DNA of 64,000 nucleotides, from NCBI GenBank assembly GCA_033439255.1, contig CM065890.1:1736001-1800000 (forward strand), in the 5' to 3' direction. This DNA comes from Hericium rajendrae (Eukaryota > Basidiomycota > Agaricomycetes > Russulales > Hericiaceae). This document shows, piece after piece, positions 1-34,329 of the stretch; position 1 is the stretch's first letter; each line of letters starts with the position of its first letter. Under the pieces are notes generated by a model. The model saw only the letters and a program-made list of their open reading frames with translations, made no database searches and was not told the DNA's origin. Position numbers and translations under genes: made by a program.

Positions 1-1
1 C

Positions 2-184
2 TCATTACAGAGTTTGTATGTTATGCTTTCAAGAGTAAAGACATTAGATGGACTAGCTATATTGAGGTGGTTTCCTCCGGCGAAAATCTCACAGCCTTTG
101 TCTCACGAATTCAGAAGTGAGTTTCAACGTCTGCATAAGCTAGCTATTGAAACTCATAGGAAGTTTCATGAGCGAGATGGATGA
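2..184 (+). CDS. PIF1/Helitron-type DNA helicase, C-terminal end (partial)
   Basis: The window begins inside a coding region whose last 60 codons read in one frame to a TGA at 182-184. They contain YVMLSRVKTLDGLAIL followed by a basic tail. This is the last motif (motif VI, with the SR-V-x-x-LDGL signature) of PIF1-family 5'-3' helicases, the form carried by Helitron rolling-circle transposons and by many PIF1-like genes scattered in basidiomycete genomes. The ATPase motifs lie upstream of the window, so I cannot say if the gene is whole or which of the two types it is. No hairpin plus CTRR Helitron end could be assigned downstream. The preceding bases end in CAG, so the exon could also start at position 11. 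Confidence 0.65.
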   Translation, partial: SLQSLYVMLSRVKTLDGLAILRWFPPAKISQPLSHEFRSEFQRLHKLAIETHRKFHERDG

Positions 185-6291: not shown

Positions 6292-7230
6292 TTACTTGAC
6301 GTCAATGATTCCCTTCATCTCAGGTTCGATCCGTCTGCAAAACCTGCACATATCTCCGCCCCACAACCAAAAACACTCGGTGGTCGATGCAATCGAGTTA
6401 GGCTCCTCCTTAGCAAACGCGAAAGAAAGACATGATCCATCGCAGAAGATACGAAGGGATTGAGCACAGTAACCAGTCTCACGATTCTTCCCGTCCGCGT
6501 GGAGTGCGATGGAGTTGTAGAAGGCCGAGATATGGAAAAGGCGATCCTTGTACTTGGTGATACATCGACCTACTTTTGGCTTATATTCTTCCCCCGGACG
6601 GATGCATCCTACTCCCGCCAGCGTCCATAAGGGATAGGCGATACAGAACCGGTCAGCGCTAAACCAGTTCATAACCAAAGTATTCCAGAATGTCGTCAAA
6701 GGGAATGTCGCAGATGGGCGTGAACTGCATATAACGTCGATGGTCGCTCCGAGTTTGGAGTTGTGAAGGTGCACGACGGACGCTATACATCCATAGTATT
6801 CGGATATGTTGTGTTGCGCAAGGTTTGCTTCTTCGGAGATATGCCGGTAGCCGAAAGATTGGCAAAGGACGTCGACGACGTGAGCAGCGGTGGACACGGA
6901 ACAGTATAGATCCATGTCTCTTGGCAACCACCCGTTGCGATAAATGGTTCCCTGTAAAATAATATAGAGAGCAAGGGATCCTGAAACGACGGCATCGACT
7001 TTCCGAAGGAAGGCTCGAAAGGCACGGACGTCTCCTACGAAGCGAGATAATTCGATCATCCAGATGTGGAGAATATAATCAGCAACGACGGTGTTTGCTG
7101 TTGCGTCGACGCCGCGAAGGGATGCAAGAGATGAGAATGATAAAAAAGAGCAGATATGCATAAGGATATCACTCCCGAGTGCCTTGAGCGGGATACGTTG
7201 TGGACAAGGTGACTGCATGGCGACGGGCAT
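6292..7230 (-). CDS. F-box protein with nucleotidyltransferase-like segment
   Basis: A single-exon gene of 312 residues. Residues about 14-60 (IPLKALGSDILMHICSFLSF..SLASLRGVD) form an F-box, the domain that ties a target-recognition protein to Skp1 in SCF ubiquitin ligases. It is followed by a segment with VVSGSLALYIIL and W-L-P-R-D-M-D-L-Y, a G-S-x(~20)-D-x-D pattern like that of nucleotidyltransferase folds, which I have seen in other Agaricomycete F-box-like proteins. The C-terminus has a Cys cluster (CFWLWGGDMCRFC). Known: F-box proteins are strongly expanded in mushrooms. Inferred: possible substrate adaptor; catalytic use of the D-x-D is unproven. The next gene is on the same strand 61 bp upstream. 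Confidence 0.6.
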   Translation of the reverse strand: MPVAMQSPCPQRIPLKALGSDILMHICSFLSFSSLASLRGVDATANTVVADYILHIWMIELSRFVGDVRAFRAFLRKVDAVVSGSLALYIILQGTIYRNGWLPRDMDLYCSVSTAAHVVDVLCQSFGYRHISEEANLAQHNISEYYGCIASVVHLHNSKLGATIDVICSSRPSATFPLTTFWNTLVMNWFSADRFCIAYPLWTLAGVGCIRPGEEYKPKVGRCITKYKDRLFHISAFYNSIALHADGKNRETGYCAQSLRIFCDGSCLSFAFAKEEPNSIASTTECFWLWGGDMCRFCRRIEPEMKGIIDVK

Positions 7231-7291
7231 AGTGGTCTCGTGAAGAAAGATCGGCAGTAGAGGGCGATATTTGATTGGCCTTGGGAATCAT

Positions 7292-7720: not shown

Positions 7721-7976
7721 GGAGGAGAGTGGATCTTCATCTGATGTTTTTGGTAGGATTATTATGGCATTCTGAAATTGGACGTTACAATTGGTTTTTG
7801 TGAGAAAACGAAGAGGAATACAAGTACCGTTCGTATTATTTGTGAAGGGCGAGAGAAGAGGGGCATCGTACAAGTTACGAAAGTGATGAAGAAAAGAGTA
7901 AAGGTTTGAACATTTAAATTTGAGTGAGACCAATCGACGCGTACCTCTTAGGGTGTGCTCGAGACCAATGTTTAGG

Positions 7977-8060
7977 GCAGAACGGCACCTTGCGGCGCCA
8001 CCGAAACTCCTGGATTGCGCAGAACGGCACCTTGTGGCGCCACCAAAACTCCTGGATTGC
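7977..8060. repeat. 42-bp tandem duplication
   Basis: Two adjacent copies (7977-8018, 8019-8060) beginning GCAGAACGGCACCTTG and ending CTCCTGGATTGC, with three differences. The period is a multiple of three, so frames through it stay open on both strands, giving misleading long open frames. Confidence 0.9.
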
Positions 8061-8311
8061 GCATGTGACTTGGACCCGGTTGCTCTTTCTACTCCATCCC
8101 GAACGAGAGGATCCCACGCTCGACCTCCTCCCGCAGCGACCACTGCGGAGGTCAAGCGACTCCCGCTGCGGGTGTCAGTACGGGCTGTGCAATGAACCCG
8201 CGTGGCGGGTGTGACGATAAGTCGCGCGGCGACTGTGGGGGTAAACGAGGCCAAACATGAGGCCGTCGATTAGCCTGGTGTAAAGCCAGCTTTAAACACG
8301 GTTAAACAAGT

Positions 8312-8881
8312 GGATGACTTCCCGTAGCCATCTGGAGCGACATTTAGCTCGACTAAATTTCTAGATACTAAATGGCCGAGCTGCCGACGCGCGCGGCAGT
8401 CATGCCGAGTGTCGGAGTGTGTCAGATCTTCGCCCGATGAAATACTATCCTAGAAATCTGAAAGGGGGGTCTCCACCCCCTCTTCAGACGCAAAGAGCGT
8501 TGCTAGACCTTGCTAGACCTATTTCGCCGCGTCGCCGGCGCCTCGTAAGCTGATGGCGCGCCTCGTTTGACCAAATTCAACGACCTAGCCATGCCGAGAT
8601 CAGGTTGAACATGTTAGATAATGAGGTATAGCTCGGCACAACCTGCCGTGATTGCAGCTCAGATTGAAATTCTGACCGTTTAGAAAAAGATCTAGAGCTA
8701 CTCAATATTAGAGAGATTTCGCAACGGCCGGAATGGAATGCTCCAATTCAAACCCCATGCTCCAACGGTCGCTTTTATGTGGGGGAGCCTAGGGTTAGAT
8801 GGCTCCACCATTCCATTCAAGATTCCATTCCGGCGAGTGCGAAAACTCTCTAATCTGCTAATGGGCTACGGGAAGTCATCC
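8312..8881. mobile_element. 570-bp inverted-repeat DNA element
   Basis: Bounded by perfect 18-bp terminal inverted repeats, GGATGACTTCCCGTAGCC at 8312-8329 and its reverse complement at 8864-8881; similarity continues a few bases inward (AT). No coding capacity. No clear target-site duplication was found, so the superfamily is open. MITE copy B sits inside, ending 13 bp before the right repeat, so this element is the older insertion or carried the MITE along. Confidence 0.65.
8711..8850. mobile_element. MITE copy B, nested
   Basis: 140 bp with 29-bp imperfect terminal inverted repeats (25 of 29 matching) that start GAGAGATTTCGCA and GAGAGTTTTCGCA and share CGGAATGGAAT. TA lies on both sides, a TA target-site duplication. 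The tips match copies A and C, the core does not, so it is a sister subfamily driven by the same kind of transposase (Tc1/mariner-like by TSD). Confidence 0.75.
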
Positions 8882-9707
8882 GGTGTCTAGGAGGTTCGAT
8901 CAGAATTTGCTACTAGTTTCGGATTCAACCGTTTCGGAGTTCCAAAAAAAACTACACCTCCATCATGGCTCCTCAATGTCTGGTGAACCTCGCATTGACA
9001 AGGGTGTGTCTCTTTCAACTTGCGCTCAACGAACCTTTGTGGATTACTGCTCAGCAGTTATTGTATAGCAGTAGTACATGCGTGGGCGTTCCGTACTGGA
9101 ACACTTTCAGTGTGGTACATCTACAAGAAAAATGCGTCAAGTATGCAAAATATGTTAAGTTATGCATGCATGTACGACCGCCGCCCTGCCACTCGTGTAT
9201 TCGTCGTTGACTTCGAGTACCATACGTGCGTCGCCGTGCTCTCTGACATGACCTTCCTGTTGGAACACAACCATGTCGTGTCATCTCTGCTCCGTGCGAT
9301 GCTGGACAGAGTCTTATGGCGTCGCGTGCGTACGTGATCTGCGCCACGTCACGCTCAAAACTGTTACTAGTCGCGCGCATAGACACCTCAGTACTAGTCG
9401 TTTCACTTCTGACGACGTGCGATGGTTACTGCGTCATCAGTGGCTTCTAGGCTTATCTTCCGGATACCACGCGTAACTCTCAGATCCATGAAGTGTTTTG
9501 CAAGAGGGTTAATAGTGCGACGTATTACTCAAATGACGCAGGCAAAATTAGAAGGGTGTGAGGGGGAAGACGTGTAAGAGGGTGGATGTGGGTTGTTTCG
9601 GGGAGTGCAAAGGTATGTATGAAGTGAGCATGTTGGTTTCATGGGTAGCATCGCGTACAACTTACAGGTATGTCTCGTGCACACGGTGATCCTTGTTGAG
9701 GTAATTA
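8882..9707. other. Gene-free stretch
   Basis: Overlapping open frames around 9020-9476 show no domain or splice structure. Nothing supported. Confidence 0.45.
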
Positions 9708-9873
9708 GAGAGTTTTTGCAATTAACCAACTCGGACTCACTCGGACTCGACTAGTGAAGCGCCGAGTCTGATTGAGATGCAGCTGTAACCTGCCGCGGGT
9801 GGTAGGGTGAAGCGACTAATGAAGCTTGTGGCTCGACTGGTTGGGTTCGAGTCGGAGGGCTGGAAAATTTCTC
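9708..9873. mobile_element. MITE copy C
   Basis: 166 bp, the same length as copy A, with TA on both sides. Left tip GAGAGTTTTTGCAA, right tip (reverse strand) GAGAAATTTTCCAG. Internal ACTCGGACTCGACT blocks and the central GGTGGTAGGGTGAAGC match copy A. Non-coding. Confidence 0.75.
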
Positions 9874-11254
9874 TATTAAGCAAGCATAAAGGCAATAGTA
9901 GTTTGGTACCTCGGGCTCGGGTGTGCGCGTGGACGACGCTTATAAGGTAGATCCGCGTGCATGTTCACTTTCATGATGCGTGAGTCAGTGCTTTGCCGCG
10001 ACGATGGTGTCGTATATATATTGAGGTGGCTAAGACTTGCGGAGATGATCGGTCAGTCGACGAGTACAGACTAGCGCGGTACGGCATGGACATGGGAGGG
10101 GGAATTTTTAGCCGTGAAATCAGATCTGTGGAACGAAAAGGTTGATACCAGATCTAACAAACAACAGGCGATCATGTCTAGGCCTCGCACAGCTTACACC
10201 GTACACTCCTCATGACTTTGCATGAGGACGAGTTACCCTGCCTCCCGCTTTGTAGTTACGGTCATTGTATGCTTTGATGCACAATAACGAGAACTCACAA
10301 ATCTTTGATTTTGGCATGTTGAACACGCCACTGCCCGCGCGCATATCTTGGTACGCAACATGCCGCGTGGTGCTCCAAGAGCCAGTATAGCCCGCGCGGA
10401 TACGCGCGATTTCAGCTTGCGCACATGCTGCCAGACTCTCCCTCCTCCGTGCATTCCATCACGCGTATCTCGCCATTTAGTCACTTTACTGTGTTCCGAC
10501 ACGCAGCCATCACTTTCTAGCGCATTCCGACACGTGCCACTCTCCGGTATGCTCAAGTCAGAGTCTGGTGACATTTTGGGCATGCTTGATTGATGCTCGT
10601 CTATGACTGGGGTACGAATGAGGTTTCAAGATCACTTACCTTCGCATACCGCTGTCCTATCCCAACTACGGATACCTCCAGCAACCAAGGCGACTTGAAA
10701 CTGAAGGTGCGACATCGAACAAGATGCAGAGCATGCCATGGCGGTGGGATACGTGGGACACGCCGCGTAGCGTCACACTTGCGCGCCACACTGGCAAGGG
10801 AGTGCCCGGGCCGTGTCATCCAAAAGTAGGTTGCCACTGAAAAATCTTATCTTATCTTAATGGAATAGTTCCGACAATCTTGATGCACAATCTTGTTCCG
10901 GCCGAGGAGGGTCGAGTTTATCGTAGCAGGGATGGAGAACTATACCTTGCACAGTTGTGGACAGTCCAGACGGAAAATTAGCAGCAGACTTACGCAGGGC
11001 GTTAAATGATGCGCGAGAGATGAGGTGGTAGTCATAGTGAAAGATATAGGATAGATTATGGAGATATTACTTCCGTAAAGACGGGTTGAGAAACAGTACG
11101 TATGCCGGGATGCATTAGCATGTCTCACTGGATCTACAATTTCAGGTTATATATAAAGTGTAGAGTTTAATAATCCAACTCTAACTTGATTATGACAGTA
11201 TATAAATCGCGACTATATTGCATTCTTGCTTCGTACAAACATCTTCAACAGGAA
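9874..11254. other. Gene-free stretch
   Basis: Contains short opposing open frames (10233-10593) without recognisable content, and AT-rich DNA from 11130 downstream of the next gene's stop. Nothing supported. Confidence 0.45.
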
Positions 11255-12106
11255 TTATGAGTTTGCAGCAAAGGTTCTCTGCAAACCGCCTATTATAGAA
11301 TAATCTATATTCTCTTGGTCTGAGGACTTGTATTCTTCTGGCACCGGCTTATAATCTTCCTTTTTTAGACCATGCGGGAAACTCGGCACGGCGACAAAGT
11401 CCAACACTATTCGCAAACTTGGCTTGCGATTATACGTCTTTACTAGCTCTTCATCAGAGCTGCTAGAAAGCTCCGTAAGCGGTGACGAGGAAAATATGTT
11501 TGCTGATGAGGCAGTAACAGGCCGTTCGTCCGTGCCTTCGGCATGTGACGGCTGCAAGCAAATAAAAAGGTCAGGCAATTTGTAGTTAGAGATACTGTCC
11601 ATTCTGTATAGCTTACTTCTGGAACGTGTTCATTTACGCTGATCTGTAAGTTTGACTGAAATTAGAAAATAGCTTAGTGACAGTGAGAAATAAAATATAC
11701 CGGATTGATCGTTTGCTCGGTGTGAGCGAAGACATTTACTGGCATGGTATGGTCCAGTATATTTGCCATATCTCTGTCAAGACGTGTTCTGTCTTCTTCC
11801 AAACGTCTGCTCTCCATTTCCATATCGATGGCACGTCTTTCGAATTGATTCATAATATCAAGCCAAGATGTAGATGCGTTTTCCAACGGCGGATCTGTAC
11901 CCTGAAGTATACAAGTTCAGTGAGGACAATATATTCGTTCGTAGATGGGCTTTTACACTTACGAACATGGTCCTGTATAAATTTGCAAGCGCAATTGCTG
12001 TGTCATGCGCAAAATCCTAGTATAACGAAATATTGTGAACCTATGTGACATTCTTTTGGTCGAAATCTCGCACCGAGTGACTTGAAGAACTATGCGTTGC
12101 ATTCAT
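11255..12106 (-). CDS. Small coiled-coil protein, unknown function
   Basis: Five exons can be read in phase: 12050-12106, 11963-12016, 11701-11901, 11617-11655, 11255-11551, giving about 215 residues. The middle (LDIMNQFERRAIDMEMESRRLEEDRTRL, split here: residues about 45-75) is highly charged and heptad-like, suggesting a short coiled coil; the C-terminus is Ser/Glu-rich. Weak point: the first intron would be only 33 nt, so the first exon may be wrong. I recognise no family. It lies in a minus-strand run of small lineage-specific genes with 12471-12999 and 16315-17669. Function cannot be inferred. Confidence 0.4.
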
Positions 12107-12470
12107 GGTTGGAAATGACATGTCTTGCTCGACGATTGTAGTGATTGTTAAGTGCAAGTCGAAGTTGACAATGAAGAAGTGAGGAGTGACATTAGTCGAT
12201 TGACCGTGACATCGGGCTGCGGTTTCGTTTCATACACCTTCCCTCGAGCCATGAGAAAACGGGTTGCATATAATCAACTTTCCAGGAAGAGTACAAAACG
12301 AATTCTAAACATCATTGTCGAAAAGAAAAGACATCTACCGAGAAAACCACAATCATGGCATCGTGACGAATAGCGCGGGCTATGTAACTGAAGGAGGGTC
12401 TGGATGATGCCGAACAAATCTATGGGCTCATATCAGTGTTCTGTCAGATATATAAAACCACGAGCAAAAC

Positions 12471-12999
12471 TCACTTGTCGATGGTACGCCATGCAGCGAT
12501 TAAATCCTCGGTACGAATATTTACCAATTTATTTGAGTGCATGGCTCGGCGAAATATGATTAACTCGCCTCGCCATGACTGATTGGAGCATCTGTTTCGA
12601 ATGGGAAGGGAAATTGGAAGGCTTGCGTAGTCGTGGCGATAGTATATAACGAAGGGAAGTAATCGCCCGTGTAGGTCACGAGTGAAAATTTCTCGTTTGT
12701 AGATGCCGGTGGGTGATACAAAGTAATGGCGGCAAAATGCGACCGTGGATAAGCTATGCTGGTCTGGAATATGGACAGCTTCCACAGAGATGAATTTGGG
12801 TTCTGGTTCAGTTCCAGCATAGAGTCCACGAACTCTTAACTATATAAAATAATTTGTCAGGTTTAAAATGGATTTTTAGATACAGGATACGCACAAATGG
12901 TGTCATGACACCGTTCGAAGGTAGCCAATGTGGAAAGAGTAGACAGACGATAAAACCCTTGTGAGTGGAGATTCTGGAAAGATGCACGATGAAACTCAC
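12471..12999 (-). CDS. Small protein with WRGELIIFR motif, unknown
   Basis: Two exons (12895-12999 and 12471-12839) joined by a 55-nt GT..AG intron encode about 157 residues. The C-terminal half reads LLPFVIYYRHD, then LPISLP, then SWRGELIIFRRAM, then KLVNIRTEDL. The W-x-G-x-(LIV)-x-(IV) step after a P-x-x-(IV)-x-(WY) strand resembles the N-terminal domain of the array genes at 27.5-34 kb (LVW..LP..PLTLWLLGQV), so this may be a one-domain cousin; that link is my inference. A second open frame over the same DNA was rejected because only this one continues through the splice. Confidence 0.45.
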
Positions 13000-16314: not shown

Positions 16315-17669
16315 CTACAGACGCTCCGAAAACGGTCGAATATCTTCGACCGGTTCCTCAGACTCCAAAGCGCACATCTGGGAAACACTAGTTAAATGAA
16401 AATAATACTTCCATGATGGAGCAGAGGCTTTTTTTCCTGCACTTGTATAACTGCTCGAGCTGCTAGCGTCATAGCGACCTACAGCAGCTTCAACCAAGAC
16501 AATATCCCCTTCAGCAATCTCTGAAGCATCGAGTGTTGACATCGGATTAACCCCGGTTTTGTTCTGATACTCGATCCGCGCATCGTAAACCTCCCTAAAT
16601 TTTTCTGCCTGGAAAAGTTGATAAGCCCTGTTAAAGTATGCCACTAAAAATACTTACTACAGGAGCAGGTTCTCCACATACGCGTCGGGTCTTCCAACAA
16701 GAAGCTCGAATATCGTGCGTCGAATCGTCCAATGAATCCGCGGGAGCACCGAGACGTTTGAGAAGTTGTCTGGCTGCCTTGAAGGAAGATTCCGTCAACG
16801 GTGCTACGTGAATGGCAGGCTGAGAGACCGGATCTCCTTTTCCATTGAAAAACCACTTTTTAACCACTTTCCCCAAGATCCATACAATAATCGGTTGCGA
16901 CGCCATAGGCGTATATAGTAGATTGGTGCTGGTCATCTTGCCCTTCGTGGCCTTTTCCCAAACAATAGCGGTCGGGACACGCAAGATGGAGTAATTTTGA
17001 AATTCTCCATTTGCATATAATAAAAACTTAAGGAATCGGCTTTATTTAAACTAATAAGCACCATCGCAGTTCATTAAAACAACTAAACCTCACTCTATTT
17101 GCGACTGACTGAACGATTGCTCGCTCAACTCCCGAGTAAGAGAGGCGATGGTTACATCGATACCTGTGGATGTCGCAGGTCGAGTCGGAGGTCCGGACAC
17201 GTGTTGTATGTCGGATTGCGGAGTCAAGTCGGAATTTCGATTTCCGGAGTTTTCCGTTTCAGTTCTGATCGTTTGCCCTAACCTCATGTTCAGAAAACAT
17301 GCGCTGGCAAAATTTGGCCGTAGACGCGAACATACCTGTGACCGTATCCGTCACCCTGACACCACCGGCTTCATTGTCTCGAGGTTCTTCAATCTTGTCG
17401 TCAATCGTTTCAGAACTACTACCTCTCCCATGAACACTATACGTTGAATAAAGTGAGTATTCAGACAAGACTCTTGGTGCGTAAATTAACCTTGCTCGTT
17501 CTTCAGCAGAGTCCTCTGCCTGTGTGCTGTCAGAATTGCCAGAAATCTTTCTATTATTTCCATTCCAATGTCGAATCTGCATAAAGACAAACCGGGTTCG
17601 CTTGGCAGGGCGTTCTGAATGAGAATCCATGGATGAATCAGTGGGCTTTCGACGAGATGAAGGCGGCAT
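16315..17669 (-). CDS. Two-domain 'VW/WDGR' family protein with Ser/Thr-rich N-terminus
   Basis: The C-terminal two thirds (exons about 17021-16661 and 16611-16315, the second intron 49 nt) match the array proteins at 27.5-34 kb: VPTAIVW, then PIIVWILGKV, then IHVAPL in the first domain; FREVYDAR, then EGDIVLVEAAVGRY, then WKYYFHLTSVSQM and a closing PFSERL in the second. Upstream exons (17669 to about 17091, three introns) encode a Ser/Thr/Glu-rich leader starting MPPSSRRKPTDSS. They join in phase only if the T-run at the exon start (17017-17021) had one more base, so either this is one gene with a length error or two genes. Function unknown; possibly nucleic-acid binding (OB-like strand pattern), which is inference only. 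Confidence 0.55.
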
Positions 17670-18434: not shown

Positions 18435-19576
18435 ATGTCTTTTATCCAAAGTAAGTCCCTTTCAAAATCGTATCCCAAAGAAATGCAGTCCTTACATTAT
18501 TGTAAAGTGTTAGACGGAACGAGTCTTGTTCGCGATACATTCCCGACAGATGTAGTCTGCCTCGCTCAGGACAATGTGGTTATCAACAGTCCAGATACGA
18601 GAGAAATTGTCCCAGTCACTTATGACGATTTACTTGATTGGTCATTTGTTGCTATCAATAATGCGACGCACGACCTATCACGACAATTCGATTTACTTCA
18701 CTATCCCCTCAATGATGAAGACGAACCCCCAAAGGTCAGCATTCGCGCGCAGGGATTTTTGGGCGAGTTCAATTTTCGATCTACTGGAAATTGGAATGGG
18801 TAAATAGTTGACCTTCTAATGCACATTTTCCTTTATGTTGACTTTTTTGAAACTAGAATCACTACCAACGCATGTAAGGCGACTAACTTCCTTGTGCTAG
18901 AATCAGGACCCTTCGTAGAACAATTCGCGGCGTTACAAATTGCTGTTAACCATATCAAAACGCTCATACACCGTTCTCTTTATATTGGAGGTGAACAACA
19001 GCCACCTATTGAGTCAGTTCGGAATCAGTTATTTTGCCAACGACGCGTCTTTACAAAGGTATGGCAGTATCGGGTTATTTTAATATTTTAGCTAAGTTTT
19101 TCTCTAGGTATCCGGTCTTGATCCAAAGCCAGCATCCGTCCTTAATAGATCCGATCCACTCGCCGTTATGGCAGAAGCCGTGCAGGATATGTGGCGCGTC
19201 ACTGACAGAATTAAATTCGGGGTTCGACAAAAAAGTGGAACAGTGGTAGCTGCGCCTCATCTCATCTTCACCAGAGGAGATTTCGTAGATATATTGATCT
19301 CTTTCGACATTGCCACGGTACGCCGCTCTCGAGACGGCATGCCGACTACGGTAGTACACGTCTGCCCAGAGCATATCATTCAATTATGCCCCGCAAGTCA
19401 AGTACAACAGGTAAATATATTTCTACTATCATTTGAATTTGTCCAGCTAAACAAATTCACAGCTCATTGCCTTCCCCATGACGTCTCACGTTCTTTCTTC
19501 AAAGACTGGACGATTGCTTGACTCGGCAGCGGTCTTCGACGTCTCTGAAGGACAGTCAAGCGAAGAGATACTATAA
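18435..19576 (+). CDS. Agaricomycete 'RGDFVDI' protein, unknown function
   Basis: Four exons in phase (18435-18799, 18857-19058, 19108-19410, 19463-19576) encode 327 residues and end in TAA. The third exon holds IFTRGDFVDILISFDIATV, then a DGMP turn, then HVCPEHIIQLCPAS. The pattern G-D-F-V-x-(IV)-x-(IV)..H-I-I-x-L recurs in the second domain of the array proteins (HDFVLAEVQIV..LQHIVVL), suggesting a shared beta-rich fold; I know the RGDFVDV signature from other uncharacterised mushroom proteins but no function for it. No membrane segment or signal peptide. The start ATG follows a CAAA context. Confidence 0.6.
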
Positions 19577-24992: not shown

Positions 24993-26990
24993 ATGGCCAA
25001 CGTGGACATCTTGCCAACGCAGGCGGTCAATGTCAATAATGCTCGGAAGCACGTACTTGAGCTAGATTCTCAGGTACGTTTTTCACATTCTTTATAGCGC
25101 CTTGCTTTCAGCATCGTTGCTGACGCTACTTTCCTCCCTCAGACATCATTTTTGCCGTACAAGCGCCCCAGAGGCGATATCTCTGCCCAACTTAGCAGCA
25201 TCATCGCCGAACAGGACGCTGCGAAAGCAGCAGAGGAAAACACTTGTGAGCTAGATTCTCAGGTACGCTTTTCATACTCTTCATACCGTCTTGTTGGGCA
25301 TTGTTCCTGAAATTGTTTTCCGCCGTACAAGCATCCCAGAAGCGACGTCTCTGTCCAGCTTAGCAACATCATCGCCGAACAGGACGCCGCTGAAGCGGCA
25401 GCGGCAAGCGTAGCTAAGAATGCTGCCGTCCGTCGAATGGTACGTGCCGTCATCTTCTACAAGAGTGTCATCTACTAATGCTTCATTCAGACGCGATCCA
25501 TGACAGCTCATCTGCGCAAGCCGGCTATAGTCTACGATGCGCCAGCCTCATTCGATTTCGGTGCGCAAGTTCAAGATGCTCTTACCCACGAGAGCCCACC
25601 GCTTCCCAAAGCTTCAGTGGCATTATCTCCAAACTCCGAGCTGCCTCTCAAGCTGCAGGAAGACAGCTCACCTTCTGCCCAGGTTCCAGCGTCGTCGTCT
25701 TCAAACAACGCTATGCCTCTCACACCGCAGCAGAAGTACCAGCTAGGCCGGCGTCTTCGGAAACGCAAGGCTACAAAAGGCCCAGGCGGCGTGCGCTTGA
25801 AGGCCGCCAGGAAACATGCCGCCCCAGCTTCCACAGGCCCCGAATTTGTGGCCGAGAAGCTACCGCATTCCAAACCTGGATGGGTTGGCAGCTATGCCGA
25901 GTTGGACAAGGTTGATGGCCGCATGTATACACTACAGGAGCTCCTCAATATGGGCTTCAAGCTTGTCAAGTGGAATGGAAGGTGCATGCCATGCTCTCTT
26001 TCGTCTAATATGGCTGCTGAGCTATGTGTCCTAGGGATTACAAGATCGTCCGCACAGCAAGTGGCCGATCCATGCTCATGCTTGTTGGCCGCCCCGGTGA
26101 AGGTGGCGGTCGAACATGGGAGGAAGTAATAGTTGGAGCAGCGGAGGCAATGGATGCCACAGCTGAAGAGTTCGACCTCCATGAACCCACCAAGATGGCT
26201 CGTGGAGGCTATCCCGTCATCAACATTGGCGTAGGGGCTGGACGTGGACCCCAGGTAAGCTTTCAAGCCATCCTTATGTGCTCTTCTGAGCCACTTCGCA
26301 GGCTCCATACAACCGTGTGGACGTAGCTGCTGCTGTCGGCCTGCTTGCGCATCCTGATATTAAGCGGATCGCACATTTTCAGAGCAGTGAGCATAGTTCA
26401 GTTTGACCTTTGTCTATTTAGCTGACCGTGCCTCGAAAGATGCATTCGCGACCTCGGCACCCAAGCTCTATGCACACTATAAAGACAACATCGACAAGGT
26501 TTTCGAACATAACCCAGACCTCCGCAAGAACTTCCCAGGTAGCATTTTCCCCGCTGCTGCATTCAACTTTGGACCAGACGCCGTGACGATCGCACATCGT
26601 GACAGACAGAATGTTGCCTATGGCCTATGTGGAATAACGTCGCTGGGGTCATTTGATCCTACAAAGGGCGGCCACATTTACTTCTGGGAGCTTGGTCTTG
26701 TTGTTGAGTTTCCACCTGGGTCCACCATCCTTGTCCCCTCCGCCTGCATAACCCATGGGAACACGCCAATTCAGCCTGGCGAACGTCGGTCGTCCTTCAC
26801 GCAATATTGCGCTGGCCATATGTTCAGCTTTGTGTCCCATGGCTACCAGACAGGCACAAAGCTTAACTCAGCAGCTAAGCGTGCGTCCGATGCTCAAGGC
26901 CCAGCAAGATGGCAGTATGGCGTAGATTTGTATTCCAAAGTCAACGAGCTTGCTGATGATATAGTAAAAGTATTTGGTTTCAACATGTAG
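24993..26990 (+). CDS. TET/JBP-type 2-oxoglutarate/Fe(II) dioxygenase
   Basis: Seven exons (24993-25073, 25143-25262, 25332-25439, 25491-25981, 26035-26254, 26302-26386, 26422-26990) keep phase throughout and give 557 residues. The last exon is the double-stranded beta-helix core: TIAHRDRQN supplies the His-x-Asp iron ligands (H427, D429), GGHIYFWELGLVVEFPPGS is the GG-turn and following strands, ITHGNTP supplies the distal His (H480), and GERRSSFTQY the Arg (about 490) that binds 2-oxoglutarate. Known: this class oxidises 5-methylcytosine in DNA, and in mushrooms it is expanded together with KDZ transposons. All catalytic residues are present. The N-terminal half is disordered and basic (GRRLRKRKATKGP). 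No KDZ transposase is visible nearby. Substrate is inferred from family only. Confidence 0.8.
25059..25410 (+). repeat. Intragenic tandem duplication of intron plus exon
   Basis: GAGCTAGATTCTCAGGTACG recurs 189 bp apart (25059 and 25248), each time followed by an intron and an exon encoding P-Y-K-x-P-R-x-D-(IV)-S-x-QLS-x-IIAEQDAA. The dioxygenase thus carries two copies of one coding module, and the duplication copied the splice donor too. Confidence 0.85.
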
Positions 26991-27552: not shown

Positions 27553-28405
27553 ATGGATCCCTCCAACACACCTATCATCCCAGACTCTTTGAACGAGTGA
27601 GACGTCATATTAAATACATATTTTCTAAATCTGACCACTCTTTTAGCCGCCTACATCGAATCGCAGAGTATAATAATCCCGACTTGGGAATTTACAGCTT
27701 AAAAAAAATCCCCCGCGTACTCGTCTGGTACAATCCACCTTCAAAACCACAGCGCGTTTACTTGCCTCACTCTATGATTCCACTCACGCTATGGCTTCTC
27801 GGTCAAGTTCAGCACGCGACATTCGCAGTTTCCTATAATGGTCCTACGGATAGGATCCATGTTTGCATCCTACCTCTGAACACCGACTACTACGACTTAG
27901 CCATAAGCTGTCTTAATAGGATGTCAACCATGAGAGGTATAACATAATATAAATCATCTTCAAACTATCTTAGGTTGATCTACTTTTAATATAGCGGCTC
28001 ATGAGCCTTCTATACTAGGCGCCTCGCGTCACCAATCTTTTCGAATCGCTGGAAGTCGCACTCCCGTCGTGTGTATCTAATCATCGGTATATTAAAGGCA
28101 GCTATATTAACCTCTTTTAGTATGAGGATTTCCGCAACATATGGGACGGCACTTCATGCCTTTCTGCCAAAAGCTCCATGAAACATTACGACAGTCCTCT
28201 CAAAGTCCATGACTTCGTTCTTGCCGAAGTTCAGATCGTCAAATATCACAAGGGAACGCGTGACCCTTTCATCGGCTTCCACGAAATGAGGAAGGCCTGG
28301 TTTGAGCTTCAGCATATAGTCGTCTTACACACGAGTCCAGAGACAACACCGTCCATATCTCCCTCCCCACTTCATCCTACTGACGTCCTGCCTGCTTACT
28401 TTTGA
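27553..28405 (+). CDS. Array gene 1: two-domain 'VW/WDGR' protein
   Basis: Four exons (27553-27596, 27647-27936, 27995-28065, 28121-28405) give about 229 residues. Domain 1: IPRVLVWYN, then YLPHSMIPLTLWLLGQV, then TDRIHVCILPLN. Linker: HEPSILGASRHQSFRIAG. Domain 2: FRNIWDGT, then VHDFVLAEVQIVKYHKG, then AWFELQHIVVL, ending DVLPAYF. Every block recurs in the next genes, and introns sit at the same places. I know no named family. The strand-rich second domain with D-(FI)-V-x-x-E-V-x-V could be OB-like. The third donor (GTCGTG) is weak. It is the first gene of a head-to-tail array behind the TET/JBP gene. Confidence 0.65.
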
Positions 28406-28999
28406 AGAAATTACATCTCTATCTACTATCTTTCGATTCTTCGTAGCCTCACTCTCATCCGAAGCACATCGCCTTTCAAAAATCGATTCCTCTCCCTTCA
28501 CCGCTAAGATTTCTGACCGTGAGAAGGTCCGATAAACATAACCAAATATTCATTCTTGTCCGCTACGTTGCGCCATCTGTTCTCTTTCAGCCCTTCCCTG
28601 CTCTTCTAGCAAAACGAAATGTTACCACTCAACCAGAACAAGCTCCTTCAGTACAGTATGCCGTACTCTTCCTTGTCTCAAAATCAGCCATTCTAGACTC
28701 TCAAAGCTGCCATCTCCGAATGCCGCAATGATCTTACGATATTTTCTTCCTCATCTGCTACGCATTATACATCGGCTTACTTATGCGCAGTGACTGCTTC
28801 CCCATCCTCCTCCTCGTATACCTCATCAATCTACGAGAAATGCTTTCCTAAGCCAGATCAATCTGTAGTCGGTCGCCGGCGATGGCACCGATCACGACCA
28901 CATAAACATTCCCGCAGTAAGTCTGCGCTAGTGCGGCACCGTTCTCGAATAATCATAGACATTCAAAGCCATTACTACACGAAAACAATACGTAGGCAT
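28406..28999. other. Spacer between array copies
   Basis: No intact gene. Open but motif-free frames at 28519-28731 and 28790-29113. The latter runs into the damaged array copy that follows. Confidence 0.4.
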
Positions 29000-29806
29000 C
29001 ACTTACAGCCAATTAATCCTTGCCCGTCCTCTCCTACGAACTATAGCATATCCTTACGGTGGCTTTCAACGTCAAGTATGGTACGCCCAGCTTCTCACTA
29101 TATTCGTCTATAACCTACTGATTAGATCGAACTTCGCAGCTCTATGATTTCGGAGCCGCCAGTTCGAGAATATTATTGATCAGATCGGCTTTACAAACCA
29201 TTGAAAACCCAACGACCAGGTGCACCTCGCAGTACTGATCGAGGGTGTCACCCTTTCTATACACTATAACATCTTCGACAAATTCGCATGGACACGCCGC
29301 AAACAACGTCTTTTTTCAGCTATGACGGTAAAGCAATACCTCCTTACAACTTTTGGAAACTGACAATCGATTTTAGTCACATCCTTCAGCCGCTTCCCTG
29401 ACAAATACCCAAAATCAAGGACTTCGGTCCTGCGGGATCCGTTTAGTTCGACCTACACCTCCAAGTTTCTTTCTTCTAGTATTAGATCCGCCGCCAGTTG
29501 TATGTTTCTCTACATATATATATTCTTCCAAATATTGATCACATGATATAGGCTCCAGAACGAAACCATAACTTCCAAATCGCAAGGGGATTTTTCCACT
29601 GGACGAATATTCACGGCACTATGTACACATCTGTTACATCCGCCGACATTGTTCTTTTTTTATCAATTATTTCCTCCACACAAAACTCTCGACCGCATGT
29701 ACTGATTGAGCTGGATGCTTCTATGGGGTCTGTCATCGCCTTCTGCACTGTTTTATCCCTGCACCAACGTCAAGGTTTAACGTTCTACGATGCTGGAGAT
29801 ATTTGA
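29000..29806 (+). pseudogene. Array copy 2, damaged or mis-sequenced
   Basis: Recognisable pieces in family order: LRTIAYPYGGFQRQVWYA, then NDQVHLAVLIEG, a GT..AG intron, the linker HPSAASLTNTQNQGLRSCG, then FFHWTNIHG, TSADIVLFLSI and a C-terminal strand VLIELDASMGSVI. The pieces align with domain 1, linker and domain 2 of the neighbours, with the linker splice in the same place. The frame breaks just before NDQVHL; adding one C to the CCC run at 29206-29208 restores ENPNDQVHL, so a length error is possible. Without that the copy is a pseudogene. N-terminal exon not found. Confidence 0.5.
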
Positions 29807-30136
29807 GTGGCTTATCGGTACCTGTAGGAATATTTACCACTTTCGTGCTTTTTTCCAAAAACAAATATGTCACTTTCCTCCACCGATCCAGGTCTGACAT
29901 CCTAAATCTCAACATCGTCATCATGCCAATTATTACACATCGAGCTAAGCCGCGGCTGATTCATTCCACCCTAGTTGAATCCGCTCTCCGTGCCCTTCGA
30001 TCGCATGTAATCTTATCTGCTTCCCCGTTAAACCAGTGAGTTACTCAAATATCATCTTCCCGCTTTCGACCTATCTTCCCGAAAACCAACCTTAGCCATC
30101 ACCTCCTCATATCATACTCCAATCCACATATTCAAC
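29807..30136. other. Spacer between array copies
   Basis: Holds a 38-codon open stretch from an ATG at about 29923 ending before GTGAG, possibly an orphan first exon. Nothing firm. Confidence 0.35.
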
Positions 30137-30989
30137 ATGCCCGAGGGAGAAAGCAACTTCTCCCCTGACAACAATAGTGATTTAGACAATTCAACGCTCG
30201 CGTAAGATACTTTTTGGCTGACTCAAGTAAGTCTTCATGCTAACTTGACTTCAGCCACCGTCTTCGTACCATATTCAACTACGAGAATCATGAAATTGGC
30301 ATCTATGGTTTAGGTGCATCTCCGACGCACTGCGAATGGAACGACTACCCTCGACGCGTCAGACGTCTTCACCGTTCTGGCGCGCAAAATGCTCTGACTC
30401 TGTGGGTTACGGGATTACTAAGACATCTCAATATTTACTCCCGGGACGGAGAGCCGCTGGAGATCGTCAGGGTCACGATTAGTCCTCATGGTGAGGATCA
30501 AGCTGAAGCAGCCATGGCTATACTCGGAGAACAAGCTACGACCATCGGTATGTACCAATTTTCTAAACACTTTGGAGATAGAGTCACATCTTCTTCCTCA
30601 GACAGCGATGAAACCCAGCAAATTTCTATTGGCGCTTCACGCTGTCAGAGTGCCCGTATTCATGGGCTAAATGGCCACTCCGTTCGTCTAATTCATTATC
30701 TTTTCAAAAATCATCTAAAACATCATAGATTCCTCCTTTCACAAACATCTGGGATGGCCGCGAACGCTTCACATCTAAATCAGACATGACCCGTTATACA
30801 AAGCCACTCACCAAAAACGACCACATCCTTCTCGAAGTAGAAGTTGTGAAAAGATTCAATTGGTTTCTACGAAAATGGGAGCCAACAGCATTTGAACTTC
30901 AGCATATTGTCCTTTTGCAGGCTACTCAAGTATCTGCCGAAGATTCTAACTCTTCTCGTATCGCCGACACCTTACCTGTCCAGCTGTAA
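30137..30989 (+). CDS. Array gene 3: two-domain 'VW/WDGR' protein
   Basis: Four exons in perfect phase (30137-30201, 30255-30547, 30602-30681, 30729-30989) give 232 residues. After an acidic leader (MPEGESNFSPDNNSDLD) comes HRLRTIFNYENHEIGIYGL, then ALTLWVTGLLRHL, EIVRVTISP; linker ISIGASRCQSARIHG; domain 2 FTNIWDGRERF, NDHILLEVEVVKRF, AFELQHIVLLQ and the end DTLPVQL. Length and exon sizes nearly equal array gene 1, so this is the cleanest reference copy. No transmembrane, signal or catalytic motif seen. Function unknown. Confidence 0.7.
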
Positions 30990-32468
30990 CGTTCTATTTG
31001 TAGATATCTATCGAAAACAATTGGAATTTCTGCCTTCCTGTTCGCCGCCACCGTACTATCTTCTTCCTCGGCAAGTCGTTTCTTCGTTTCTTTCCGACTG
31101 TTCAGGCACAGGATCCACTGGTTACGAGGCCGGAACTGCTGATGCAGACGCTGGCGCAGGTTCAACAGGCTATACCTCGCTTGTCTAGCCAGGAATCACG
31201 ACTCTTGACTCTGAGAAAACGGCCCTGTATGTTTTTCAAGTCTCTGCTCTAAGAACAACTGATTTTGACGTCTACACATCGAAGACCACACGGCCGCTTC
31301 AGCAACCGAAAGACGATCCCGTCCGACATATCCTTTGAGCACAGGCAGTACGCACGACCCCATTGCAACCCATCTGATGAGCTCGCACAGTTATCCGAGA
31401 TCCATCTCGTCAAACCAGTACCTTGAGCACAAAGAGAAGAACATCACGACCAACTCATAAAGATGGTTTACGGTCCGTCGCCTACACCTGATATACTTCT
31501 TCCATAGAGCTCTTCATTAGCAAGGTCCCCAGACGCCACCAAGACGCAAAAATATGACCGGATCATGGGGAAGAATATGACCACTCCCACTGACCTCTTT
31601 CCCTCATGTCTGCTGTCAAGTCCACAATGCTCACCAACCTACCCCATCATCCACGGCTTCTCCCCCTTCCACACGTCTTCAACACATCGTACGTTTCCAT
31701 ATCAGTCCCCACACGCCCGCAATATGCACCTACGCTACACGCCCGCTACCTGCACGCGCGTAATCGTATACGCTATGCGCGCGCCTGCCCGTCCGTCCGT
31801 CCGACCTACTCCCACGTATCCCCGCGTCGTATGCACGCATATCGCGCCAGAACATGGGCCGAGCCGGCCCAAAGAGGCCTGACTCAACTCGGCCGACGAC
31901 TTCAAGACGGACCTCCACAACAATATACACAATACATCGGATACCATAGCACAGTCCCAAGCACGGCAGTTCGTACCTTCCAAGGCTGGCGCGCACAAAC
32001 GCAAGAATACAGTGACAGCAACACGACGAAGCTACGGACGGTGCATCCACCAGTTCTACCTCTCGCTCCACACATTTGCTGCACCGCGCCCTCCGCTCTG
32101 ACCCTCCTACAGCCGGGCTACCTCGGGCTTATGTACTACCAGCAATTGAAGGACACGACGAACGACAAGGTACGTTTACGTACACAAAAAACGCGCCTGC
32201 CACTCGGTATCTTTCAGCGTGCTGACCATACCGAGATCCGTCCTCCGACGATCGATCGCAGATCGGTATGCGCCTTACACACCGCTCTACACTATATAGC
32301 CTTCCTCTAGCTACGTGAATAAACCTCCTCTTTCCAGCCTGACTGCGCATTCCATTGATTACTTATTTGAACGAAATTTACGGTAAAACAAAATCACATG
32401 ACATCACACATCTCCTGAGCCTACCAAATTCGCGCAGTCGCCTCTCCTTCTTCCCCACCTCTTCCATT
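30990..32468. other. Spacer with unrecognised coding-like DNA
   Basis: Open frames at 31565-31882 and 31606-32310 overlap in different frames. A further frame from about 31888 stays open for some 70 codons without an ATG and reads like protein (DDFKTDLHNNIHNTSDT..) but matches nothing I know. No gene called. Confidence 0.35.
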
Positions 32469-33292
32469 ATGCGTCCCGTATCTCCAGATAGTCAAAGGTA
32501 TCCATTCAACCTATCAATCCTATACGCATCTAAGACCATCCTCTTTCATAGCTGAATTGATTGTTTTCTCAATCGCCAGGACTATGACCTTCACCAGTTC
32601 TCCGTCGACGTCGTCCCAGAATTTTTAGTTTGGGACAACCGTAGAATAAACCACCTTTGCCTCCCTTCTTCCGATAAACCGATAGACATCTTCCTTGTCG
32701 GAGAAGTTATCTATGTACAGCTATTATCACCACGAGGCCAACCACGAGATCAAGTACACATCACTATCCTGCCCATTAACGCTACTCATTCCAACAACGC
32801 CCTGGCTCTTCTAAATTATGAAAAAGCTACTCCAGGTACGTCGCTGTCTTTTGATCTTAAAAACGAAGCTCATGCATACTACTAGCACACCGAGAACCCA
32901 TGCCTATTGGGGCATCCTCTGACCAAAACCTTCACGCCGCAGGACTAGCAGATCCCATGGTACGTGCCAGTTATCACTCCATCTCTTACAGCCTAAATAA
33001 TTTCACATAGATCCTTCCATTTCGAACAGTGTGGGACGGCAGAAAAAGCCCTAACAATCCCCCGGACCTACCACAACTTGATCCCGGTACCGTACAACCA
33101 GGCGACATCGTATCCCTTCGCGTACAGGTCGTCAAACACGACCTTGCTACTTCACACGATTACGGTACATACGAAGTATCTCCTAATGCATGGTTCCATC
33201 TCCAAGCAATAACTCTTCTTGATTCCTGTCCTACGACATATACTCCACAATTTCCGATTCGCCCTGCAGATACCGTACCTTTCGTATTGTAG
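32469..33292 (+). CDS. Array gene 4: two-domain 'VW/WDGR' protein
   Basis: Clear exons 32580-32835, 32886-32959 and 33011-33292: VPEFLVWDN, then CLPSSDKPIDIFLVGEV, DQVHITILPIN; linker EPMPIGASSDQNLHAAG; domain 2 FRTVWDGRKSP, PGDIVSLRVQVVKHD, AWFHLQAITLL and the end ADTVPFVL. The first exon is uncertain: the ATG at 32469 reaches a good donor at 32498 but in the wrong phase for exon 2, so the true start is elsewhere or the sequence has a length error. Exon layout equals that of array genes 1 and 3. Confidence 0.6.
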
Positions 33293-33513
33293 TCATTAGC
33301 AGATCTACTCAAAGTACCATGTACATAACCTATTACACTACGATAACCCAGCATCTTCCTGTTGTCACCGCAGCCGCTCCCGCAGAAAATGTCATCTTCA
33401 CTACAAGGCTAGTGTGTGAAAAAAGGTCCACCGTGTCACATACTTATACATCCAACCGTGCCGCGCAGTCAATTACCCATCACCGCTTCTCTCAATCTCC
33501 TCCCTCCTTCTCG

Positions 33514-34002
33514 ATGTTTATGCTGCCCATTACCGTCATCGGGTCCACGACGGCCACCCCAAACCTCATCGCAAGTGCCGATACAGGCGAATTATGGTCA
33601 GTAAATGAACTAATCTCAACAATCATTAATTCATCCCATTACAGCCGAGCGAGAGCTATCGACTTATTTAAAGATGAGTTAGCTCACAGATATGCCATTC
33701 GCTCCCTTCCTCGGGAACTAGTATGGCGTCAATCTCCACAATATCCTGGTTTTGAACTACATTCGCCTGAAGACGATGTCAACATCCGAGCTTTGATCTT
33801 AGGATCAATCCGATACATCCGCGTATTACCCCGACGGATTTCGCTTTTGTTGGAGGTACATTCCTCGGAGACAGGAATCATTATTCAACAAATGTTCCTG
33901 CTGACGACAAAACTGTCCTTGACGCCAGATGTAATCTGTCTACCAGCTGCTACAAACTGTCGGTTCTCCGGAACTTGCGCAATATATTGGTGTTGCGAAT
34001 AG
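33514..34002 (+). CDS. Array gene 5: shortened family member
   Basis: Two exons (33514-33596, 33645-34002) give 146 residues. RSLPRELVWRQ, then FELHSPEDDVNIRALILGSI align with domain 1 of the neighbours (PRVLVWYN..LPHSMIPLTLWLLGQV). The IGAS linker and the WDGR block are missing; instead SLLLEVHSSETGIIIQQMFLL may be a trimmed domain 2. It ends in TAG-free sequence closing WCCE. Either a divergent short paralogue or a copy that lost its middle. It is the last copy of the array. Confidence 0.45.
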   Translation: MFMLPITVIGSTTATPNLIASADTGELWSVNELISTIINSSHYSRARAIDLFKDELAHRYAIRSLPRELVWRQSPQYPGFELHSPEDDVNIRALILGSIRYIRVLPRRISLLLEVHSSETGIIIQQMFLLTTKLSLTPDVICLPAATNCRFSGTCAIYWCCE

Positions 34003-34284: not shown

Positions 34285-34329
34285 AGTGATCGACCACCCA
34301 TGGTTAGTAGCCATGGGTGGTCGATCACT
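34285..34329. repeat. Perfect 19-bp hairpin
   Basis: AGTGATCGACCACCCATGG at 34285-34303 is followed after a 7-nt loop (TTAGTAG) by its exact reverse complement at 34311-34329. It lies about 280 bp beyond the last array gene. Could be a transcription-end structure, an insertion footprint or a tiny foldback element. Confidence 0.9.

What the first reader, a model, noticed from the sequence alone, without database searches (positions are those of the whole stretch)
27553..34002. Head-to-tail array of an unnamed two-domain protein family behind a TET/JBP gene
Five copies (27553-28405, about 29000-29806, 30137-30989, 32469-33292, 33514-34002) share, in order, a P-x-x-(LI)VW block, a (LW)-G-x-(VI) block, D-x-(VI)-H-x-x-ILP, a linker I-G-A-S-x-x-Q, then F-x-x-(IV)-WDG, D-x-(VI)-x-x-x-V-x-VV and (FH)-(EH)-LQ-x-I, closing with D-x-(LV)-P. 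Intron places are shared too. I can name no described family. Tandem growth plus fast divergence suggests selection for variety (conflict, recognition or element-borne genes).
Basis: partly seen in the sequence, partly recalled or inferred. Interest (0 to 1): 0.78.

Follow-up and report, generated by a model that had tools for sequence, protein, structure and literature searches.

The report
Accessory genes of giant mushroom Helitrons
The tandem genes belong to a fungal jumping element that copies itself by a rolling-circle route, and they are relatives of a gene that many related elements in the same genome carry beside their replication enzyme, so they look like working parts of the element, whose job is still unproven.

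Summary
The array is real but smaller than reported: three copies with both domains, one truncated copy, and one (29000-29806) without profile support. It lies inside a large Helitron whose open 2006-aa RepHel frame ends at window 181. Three elements (C10, C9, C11) share the order RepHel-E-C-D-F-A-B; A and B are the array genes, C a relative. The window has the same genes with one block inverted. Five elements with both ends located span 17.7-29.3 kb and end in a 5' hairpin and asymmetric inverted repeats, as Helitron2 elements do. The 3' motif lies about 40-800 bp behind gene B at 7 of 7 clusters outside the window. Of 21 family loci found, 17 have RepHel within 40 kb upstream on the same strand (0.7 expected). 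Gene C and the Rep domain diverge in step (Mantel r 0.83, p 0.0001, 12 loci). pN/pS is below 1 in every correctly framed comparison, so selection for variety is not supported. No significant Pfam or PDB relative was found. Most likely an accessory factor of rolling-circle transposition, perhaps binding single-stranded DNA like plant Helitron RPA proteins; fold tests were inconclusive. The window copy has a 5' end but no recognised 3' end.

The parts
1..181 (+). C-terminal end of the Helitron RepHel gene; the open frame runs from contig C13:1730164 to 1736181 (2006 aa, stop to stop); DUF6570, Helitron_like_N (HUH) and PIF1 helicase
   Evidence: frame, RGTLHCHML motif; PF20209 3.5e-27, PF14214 3.1e-35, PF05970 3.8e-27; 76% to the C10 RepHel end
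6304..7242 (-). gene F (F-box-like at best, PF12937 E 0.092, below its cut-off), conserved cluster gene
   Evidence: 43-45% to C10 and C11
7301..7774 (-). gene D, second part
   Evidence: 44-49%
12462..12833 (-). gene D, first part; about 4.7 kb away from the second part here, adjacent to it in C10, C9 and C11
16318..16629 (-). gene C, domain 2 exon
16634..17041 (-). gene C, domain 1 exon (minimum extent)
18447..19416 (+). gene E, conserved cluster gene of unknown kind (three pieces)
   Evidence: 41-49%
26397..26987 (+). TET/JBP-like dioxygenase exon, component of some of these elements
   Evidence: PF12851 E 0.0047, below its curated cut-off; 62 matching stretches in the genome, itself included; 47% to the TET inside the C10 element
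27553..28405 (+). array copy 1 = gene A: exons 27553-27596, 27647-27936, 27995-28068, 28121-28405
   Evidence: splice sites read by eye
30137..30989 (+). array copy 3 = gene B: exons 30137-30201, 30255-30547, 30602-30681, 30729-30989
   Evidence: splice sites read by eye
32577..33292 (+). array copy 4 = extra A-like gene: exons about 32577-32835, 32886-32959, 33011-33292; first exon unresolved
   Evidence: splice model; long branch, place unsure
33514..34002 (+). array copy 5: truncated, first part of domain 1 only
   Evidence: no profile score

Best explanation
The array is the 3'-terminal part of the gene set of a giant Helitron2-like rolling-circle transposon. Shown by sequence: the best-preserved elements have a 5' hairpin end, a RepHel of about 2000 aa, in some a TET/JBP gene, then genes E, C, D, F, A, B and a conserved 3' end. 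C has single-copy relatives in divergent Helitrons; A and B form a separate branch, found as a pair next to the 3' end; the window copy has an extra A-like gene and a truncated copy. Inferred: because C diverges in step with RepHel and is under purifying selection, the family serves the element's own transposition and is not passenger DNA; the A-B pair is a later duplication. Guess (about 0.35 on its own): the proteins bind the single-stranded DNA exposed by RepHel, or load or guide RepHel, filling the role thought to be played by RPA-like proteins in plant Helitrons, with A and B possibly working as a pair.
For: RepHel with HUH and PIF1 domains beside the cluster, at 6 of 8 A/B clusters. Conserved gene order in C10, C9 and C11, with an inverted block in the window. 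C10:698537-712013 is a 96.8-98.0% copy of a C2 segment with a sharp end about 95 bp past gene B. That end gave a 3' motif with 27 genome matches at up to 2 mismatches and 0 for the backward control, present at 7 of 7 non-window clusters about 40-800 bp behind gene B on its strand (positions). A 5' motif found from four flanks has 15 genome matches; 12 pair with a same-strand 3' motif within 60 kb against 0.26 expected by a simple density estimate, six of them as 241-631 bp mini-elements; one pair, 47 kb apart on C12, may be chance. 17 of 21 family loci have RepHel upstream (0.725 expected, maximum 5 in 2000 random placements). Mantel r 0.83, p 0.0001, 12 loci. Tree: C type and single-copy relatives split from A/B at 100/100, B 99/99, C 99/98. 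pN/pS of C10 against C9 is 0.10-0.27 for genes C, D, E and F and 0.13-0.29 for A and B (from pN and pS).
Against: No sequence or fold match ties either domain to a DNA-binding family. Pfam OB-fold PF01336 appears in 1 of 16 spliced members (E 0.056) and 1 of 27 domain 2 exons (E 0.078), among unrelated hits as good or better (best 0.01 and 0.022). The weak bacterial SSB hits of the first domain 1 profile (5 of 8 matches, E 0.65-2.2, below three lectin hits at 0.0023-0.011) vanish with a broader profile, whose 14 hits (E 0.67-1.9) are viral 3C proteases or polyprotein. AlphaFold2 gave pLDDT 71 for domain 2 alone and 49 for domain 1 alone; Foldseek found nothing significant (best E 6.1 in PDB, 0.44 in the viral set). 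Twelve of 16 spliced proteins are basic, but copies 3 and 4 of the array are not (pI 6.6 and 5.3). 46 of 63 RepHel loci show no detected member. Two of 21 family loci (C14:558k, C8:1844k) have neither RepHel nor the 3' motif nearby, and some counted RepHels are broken (C1:452438 has three stops). Two A/B clusters (C1:245k, C10:1936k) lack RepHel. The window element has no recognised 3' end. pN/pS reaches 0.64 between elements (A domain 1, window against C11) and synonymous sites are near saturation. No expression data.
Confidence: 0.65

Rival explanations
1. Passenger genes: a host gene was captured by read-through past the 3' end, as proposed for cap genes of Pleurotus Helitrons, and is carried without a role in transposition.
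For: A and B lie directly before the 3' end, where read-through capture would place them. Castanera et al. 2014 (PMC4289320; sections 5, 7, 14 and find passages) say the position of capA and capB fits this model.
Against: With five queries at E up to 0.001 no copy was found away from Helitron features apart from 2 of 21 loci. Gene C or its relative diverges in step with Rep across 12 loci. pN/pS is low.
Confidence: 0.15
2. Counter-defence or host-manipulation genes: the proteins, like the TET/JBP gene, act against host silencing of the element rather than in the transposition reaction.
For: A TET/JBP gene lies in the same elements at window, C10 and C2, and transposon TET is thought to counter methylation in fungi (Kojima 2025, PMC12730594; abstract, find passages and section 3.2.3). 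A and B are duplicated and variable in number.
Against: The family occurs in elements without a TET match (C9, C11, C14). Gene C tracks Rep, more like a core replication partner.
Confidence: 0.15
3. Host gene family under diversifying selection (conflict or recognition), that happens to lie near transposons.
For: Copies 1 and 4 in the window are only 32-33% identical.
Against: pN/pS is below 1 throughout; position and strand relative to RepHel and the end motifs are far beyond chance.
Confidence: 0.03

Closest known systems
Helitron2 group of rolling-circle transposons (Bao and Jurka 2013, PMC3627910, passages; also PMC5148889, passages)
   Same: RepHel, 5' hairpin, 10-bp asymmetric inverted repeat CCTGGTCCCG / CGGGACCAGG (exact in C11 and C14), conserved subterminal 3' inverted repeat; the base after the 3' end is T in 7 of 7 and the base before the 5' end is T in 3 of 4.
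   Different: 17.7-29.3 kb with a conserved set of further genes (E, C, D, F, A, B); the passages I read do not describe such a set.
HELPO1 Helitrons of Pleurotus ostreatus with cap genes (Castanera et al. 2014, PMC4289320, sections and passages)
   Same: [quoted passage not shown] capA, capA2 and capB about 45% alike; capB found near RepHel in most other basidiomycetes that have it.
   Different: HELPO1 ends are described as T[C/G] and CTRR, elements 1.5-13.7 kb. Whether cap genes belong to this family could not be tested: no sequences at hand.
RPA-like proteins of plant Helitrons (PMC4683698, passages)
   Same: A second protein carried by the element beside RepHel.
   Different: Plant proteins are recognisable RPA homologues; these show no significant similarity to any Pfam or PDB family.
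TET-carrying Helitron2 of Agaricus bisporus (Kojima 2025, PMC12730594; abstract, passages, section 3.2.3)
   Same: A distant TET/JBP-like gene inside a mushroom Helitron2.
   Different: What I read describes the TET gene, not the A/B/C family.

Membership tests
Helitron2 | RepHel protein with HUH nuclease and PIF1-type helicase | tested here: met
   a RepHel lies upstream of 6 of 8 A/B clusters
Helitron2 | Short asymmetric terminal inverted repeats, 5' copy terminal, 3' copy subterminal | tested here: met
   CCTGGTCCCG and CGGGACCAGG exact in C11 and C14; in C10, C9 and C2 a parallel change with one mismatch (read by eye)
Helitron2 | 5' hairpin | tested here: met
   -7.8 kcal/mol, z -4.58, 0 of 200 shuffles as good
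Helitron2 | 3' hairpin | tested here: inconclusive
   GCCCGGAGGGC is conserved, but the 32-nt end folds no better than shuffles (z 0.28, 115 of 200 as good)
Helitron2 | RepHel phylogenetically inside the Helitron2 clade | not tested
   no reference RepHel set at hand
Helitron2 | Insertion shown by an empty site | not tested
   one assembly; only the different flanks of the C10 and C2 copies were seen
RPA / OB-fold single-strand binding proteins | Significant sequence match to an OB-fold family | tested here: not met
   best 1 of 16 members, PF01336 E 0.056
RPA / OB-fold single-strand binding proteins | OB fold in structure | tested here: inconclusive
   the two domains were predicted separately, domain 1 poorly; no significant fold match for domain 2, domain 1 not searched
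RPA / OB-fold single-strand binding proteins | Binding of single-stranded DNA | not testable with these tools
   needs protein
HELPO1 cap genes | Sequence similarity to capA, capB or capC | not testable with these tools
   sequences not held; supplements not available
TET/JBP dioxygenases (neighbouring gene) | PF12851 above its curated cut-off | tested here: not met
   16.6 bits against 34.9 for the exon 26397-26987; 62 matching stretches in the genome with that exon as query

The most novel reading that the evidence does not exclude
Mushroom Helitron2 elements encode their own accessory protein family, unrelated by sequence to RPA, that acts with RepHel on single-stranded DNA. An ancestral single gene C is kept across the clade, and one lineage duplicated it into an A-B pair that may form a two-subunit complex, within giant elements that carry further conserved genes and in some cases a TET/JBP gene.
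Probability: 0.35. Interest if true: 0.78.

Novelty: new variant of a known kind. Interest (0 to 1): 0.6.

Why it matters
In Pleurotus, unknown genes beside RepHel have been read as captured passengers or shuffled novelties (PMC4289320). Here one such family is tied to RepHel by position, by shared divergence and by purifying selection, which points to a working part. That makes a testable question of which proteins besides RepHel a eukaryotic rolling-circle transposon needs. The 5' and 3' end motifs also give a way to find and bound these large elements, which could be mistaken for host tandem arrays, as nearly happened here.

Tried and rejected
Copy 2 as a decayed family member: no profile support. 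KDZ transposons as carriers: 172 KDZ matches in the genome; none of those listed lies in the element spans (the list was cut). Domain 1 and domain 2 as repeats of each other: no similarity. Domain 1 as SSB-like: weak hits lost with a broader profile. Gene E as a further family member: no significant score (best 1.5 bits, E 0.21). A decayed 3' end in the window: none at up to 3 mismatches, and matches to the 10-bp inverted repeat are no more than chance (46 against 47.2). A strong hairpin at 34285-34329, found once in the genome, is noted but unproven as a substitute end. In one search four of 16 rows were framed wrongly (C D1, D first part, F, C14/C1 B D1) and were redone. The tree had one misframed row (C_c9) and was rebuilt. 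For one search, 12 of the 15 Rep stretches fetched were used: the C2 copy was left out as a near-duplicate, C10:1058k and C14:237k because their domain 1 of type C was not fetched; one Rep row held an in-frame stop, read as X, and one was partial.
Full report
What was checked. The window is C13:1736001-1800000 of an unnamed 46.8 Mb genome in 19 contigs, a mushroom-type fungus judging by its KDZ and TET content (inference). The reported blocks are present in copies 1, 3 and 4; copy 5 keeps only the first part of domain 1 (E 1.8e-7 with profiles built without window rows) and copy 2 has no profile support. None of the eight array exons scanned has a Pfam match at E up to 10.

The family in the genome. 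Domain 2 of copy 3 finds 17 exons in 8 clusters. At 7 of the 8 clusters an A-type gene is followed by a B-type gene on the same strand; at C11 the pair is doubled, at C9 the A gene is interrupted by about 6.4 kb, and at C10:1936k only a B gene was found. A third type, C, has both domains and lies upstream of the pairs at C10, C2, C9, C11 and C14; in the window it is at 16318-17041 on the minus strand.

The clusters are mobile elements. C10:698537-712013 is a 96.8-98.0% copy of a C2 segment, with a sharp end about 95 bp past gene B. Protein comparison shows a shared order in C10, C9 and C11: RepHel, E, C, D, F, A, B; C14 shows F, A and B in the stretch fetched (RepHel of C9 placed). The RepHel ORF at C11 carries Helitron_like_N and PIF1 domains; the window's own open frame is 2006 aa, from C13:1730164 to window 181, with an HUH motif. 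In the window the block TET-E-C-D-F is inverted relative to C10, and gene D is split by about 4.7 kb.

Ends. The duplication boundary gave a 3' motif, GGTGNTGCCCGGAGGGCCGTNCTA followed by T. It has 27 genome matches at up to 2 mismatches; the backward control has none. All 7 non-window clusters have it about 40-800 bp behind gene B on the same strand (positions). Comparing four RepHel upstream flanks gave the 5' motif CCTGNNCCCGTNAGGGAACAGGTCTT, with 15 genome matches at up to 2 mismatches and none for the backward control. Twelve of 15 pair with a same-strand 3' motif within 60 kb, against 0.26 expected. Full elements: C11 17.7 kb, C10 20.0 kb, C2 29.2 kb, C14 29.3 kb, and C9 22.6 kb from its one-base-shorter 5' end. 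Seven further pairs span 241-3908 bp and look like non-autonomous derivatives; the remaining pair, 47 kb apart on C12, may be chance. The 5' end folds into a stable hairpin (z -4.58); the 3' end does not fold better than shuffles (z 0.28). The 10-bp inverted repeats fit the Helitron2 description of Bao and Jurka (PMC3627910, passages read). The window element has the 5' motif with no mismatch but no 3' motif.

Linkage and inheritance. Merging the hits gives 21 family loci; 17 have a RepHel within 40 kb upstream on the same strand, expected 0.725, maximum 5 in 2000 random placements. The window locus has genes on both strands and was counted by majority; some RepHels are partial or broken. Of the other four loci, two have the 3' motif. 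By subtraction 46 of 63 RepHel loci show no detected member. Ten further loci fetched from those hits (L034-L043) carry domain 1 (E up to 8.4e-16) and a domain 2 hit (E 9.7e-16 to 0.0011) in 10 of 10; they were chosen for a match, so this is not independent. Rep-domain and C-type domain 1 distances correlate over 12 loci (Mantel r 0.83, p 0.0001). In the tree the C type and single-copy relatives separate from A and B with 100/100 support; B is one group (99/99), C one group (99/98), A is not resolved, and copy 4 is a long branch of uncertain place. I read this as an ancestral C gene and a later A-B duplication; the root is only a midpoint.

Selection. All 20 comparisons have pN/pS below 1: 0.10-0.27 for C10 against C9, up to 0.64 between more distant elements, 0.62-0.68 between copies 1 and 4. 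Synonymous differences are 0.56-0.85 per site, near or past saturation, so the values are approximate. A and B of C10 against C9 give about 0.13-0.29 (pN and pS). This is purifying selection and does not support selection for variety.

Function. The domains have no significant relatives in Pfam or PDB. Domain 2 alone models as strand, short helix, two long strands at pLDDT 71; domain 1 alone is poorly predicted, and fold searches of domain 2 gave nothing significant. My reading that the strand order over both domains could form an OB-type fold is inference. The mechanism rests mainly on analogy with plant Helitrons, many of which carry an RPA-like protein (PMC4683698, abstract start, passages), and on co-inheritance with RepHel. 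Twelve of 16 spliced proteins have pI above 8.6, but copies 3 and 4 of the array do not (6.6 and 5.3), so charge gives no clear support.

Prior work. Castanera et al. [quoted passage not shown] Kojima 2025 (PMC12730594, abstract, passages and one section) reports TET-carrying Helitron2 in Agaricus bisporus. Seven answered paper searches, of which I saw listings, showed no description of this family; subscription papers, supplements and Repbase entries were not searched.

Noticed in passing
window 34285-34329: A hairpin with a 20-bp stem (z -10.5), found once in the genome, just behind copy 5; its last two bases and the next two read CTAG. Possibly a substitute Helitron end, unproven.
   Followed up: partly
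window 25058-25407: Tandem duplication upstream of the TET exon: 91 nt at 82% and 47 nt at 87% identity, spaced 168 and 189 bp.
   Followed up: no
window 7774-12462: About 4.7 kb of DNA splits gene D, whose two parts are adjacent in C10, C9 and C11.
   Followed up: no
genome-wide (G000): Large TET/JBP (46 PF12851 matches; 62 matching stretches with the window exon) and KDZ (172 matches) expansions.
   Followed up: no
C2:2356256, C4:1273827, C6:376080, C7:2595896, C17:252732, C18:30911: Six mini-elements of 241-631 bp with the same 5' and 3' end motifs as the giant Helitrons.
   Followed up: partly
L015/L028 (C9:655.8-662.2 kb): Gene A of the C9 element is interrupted by about 6.4 kb between its two domain exons.
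   Followed up: no
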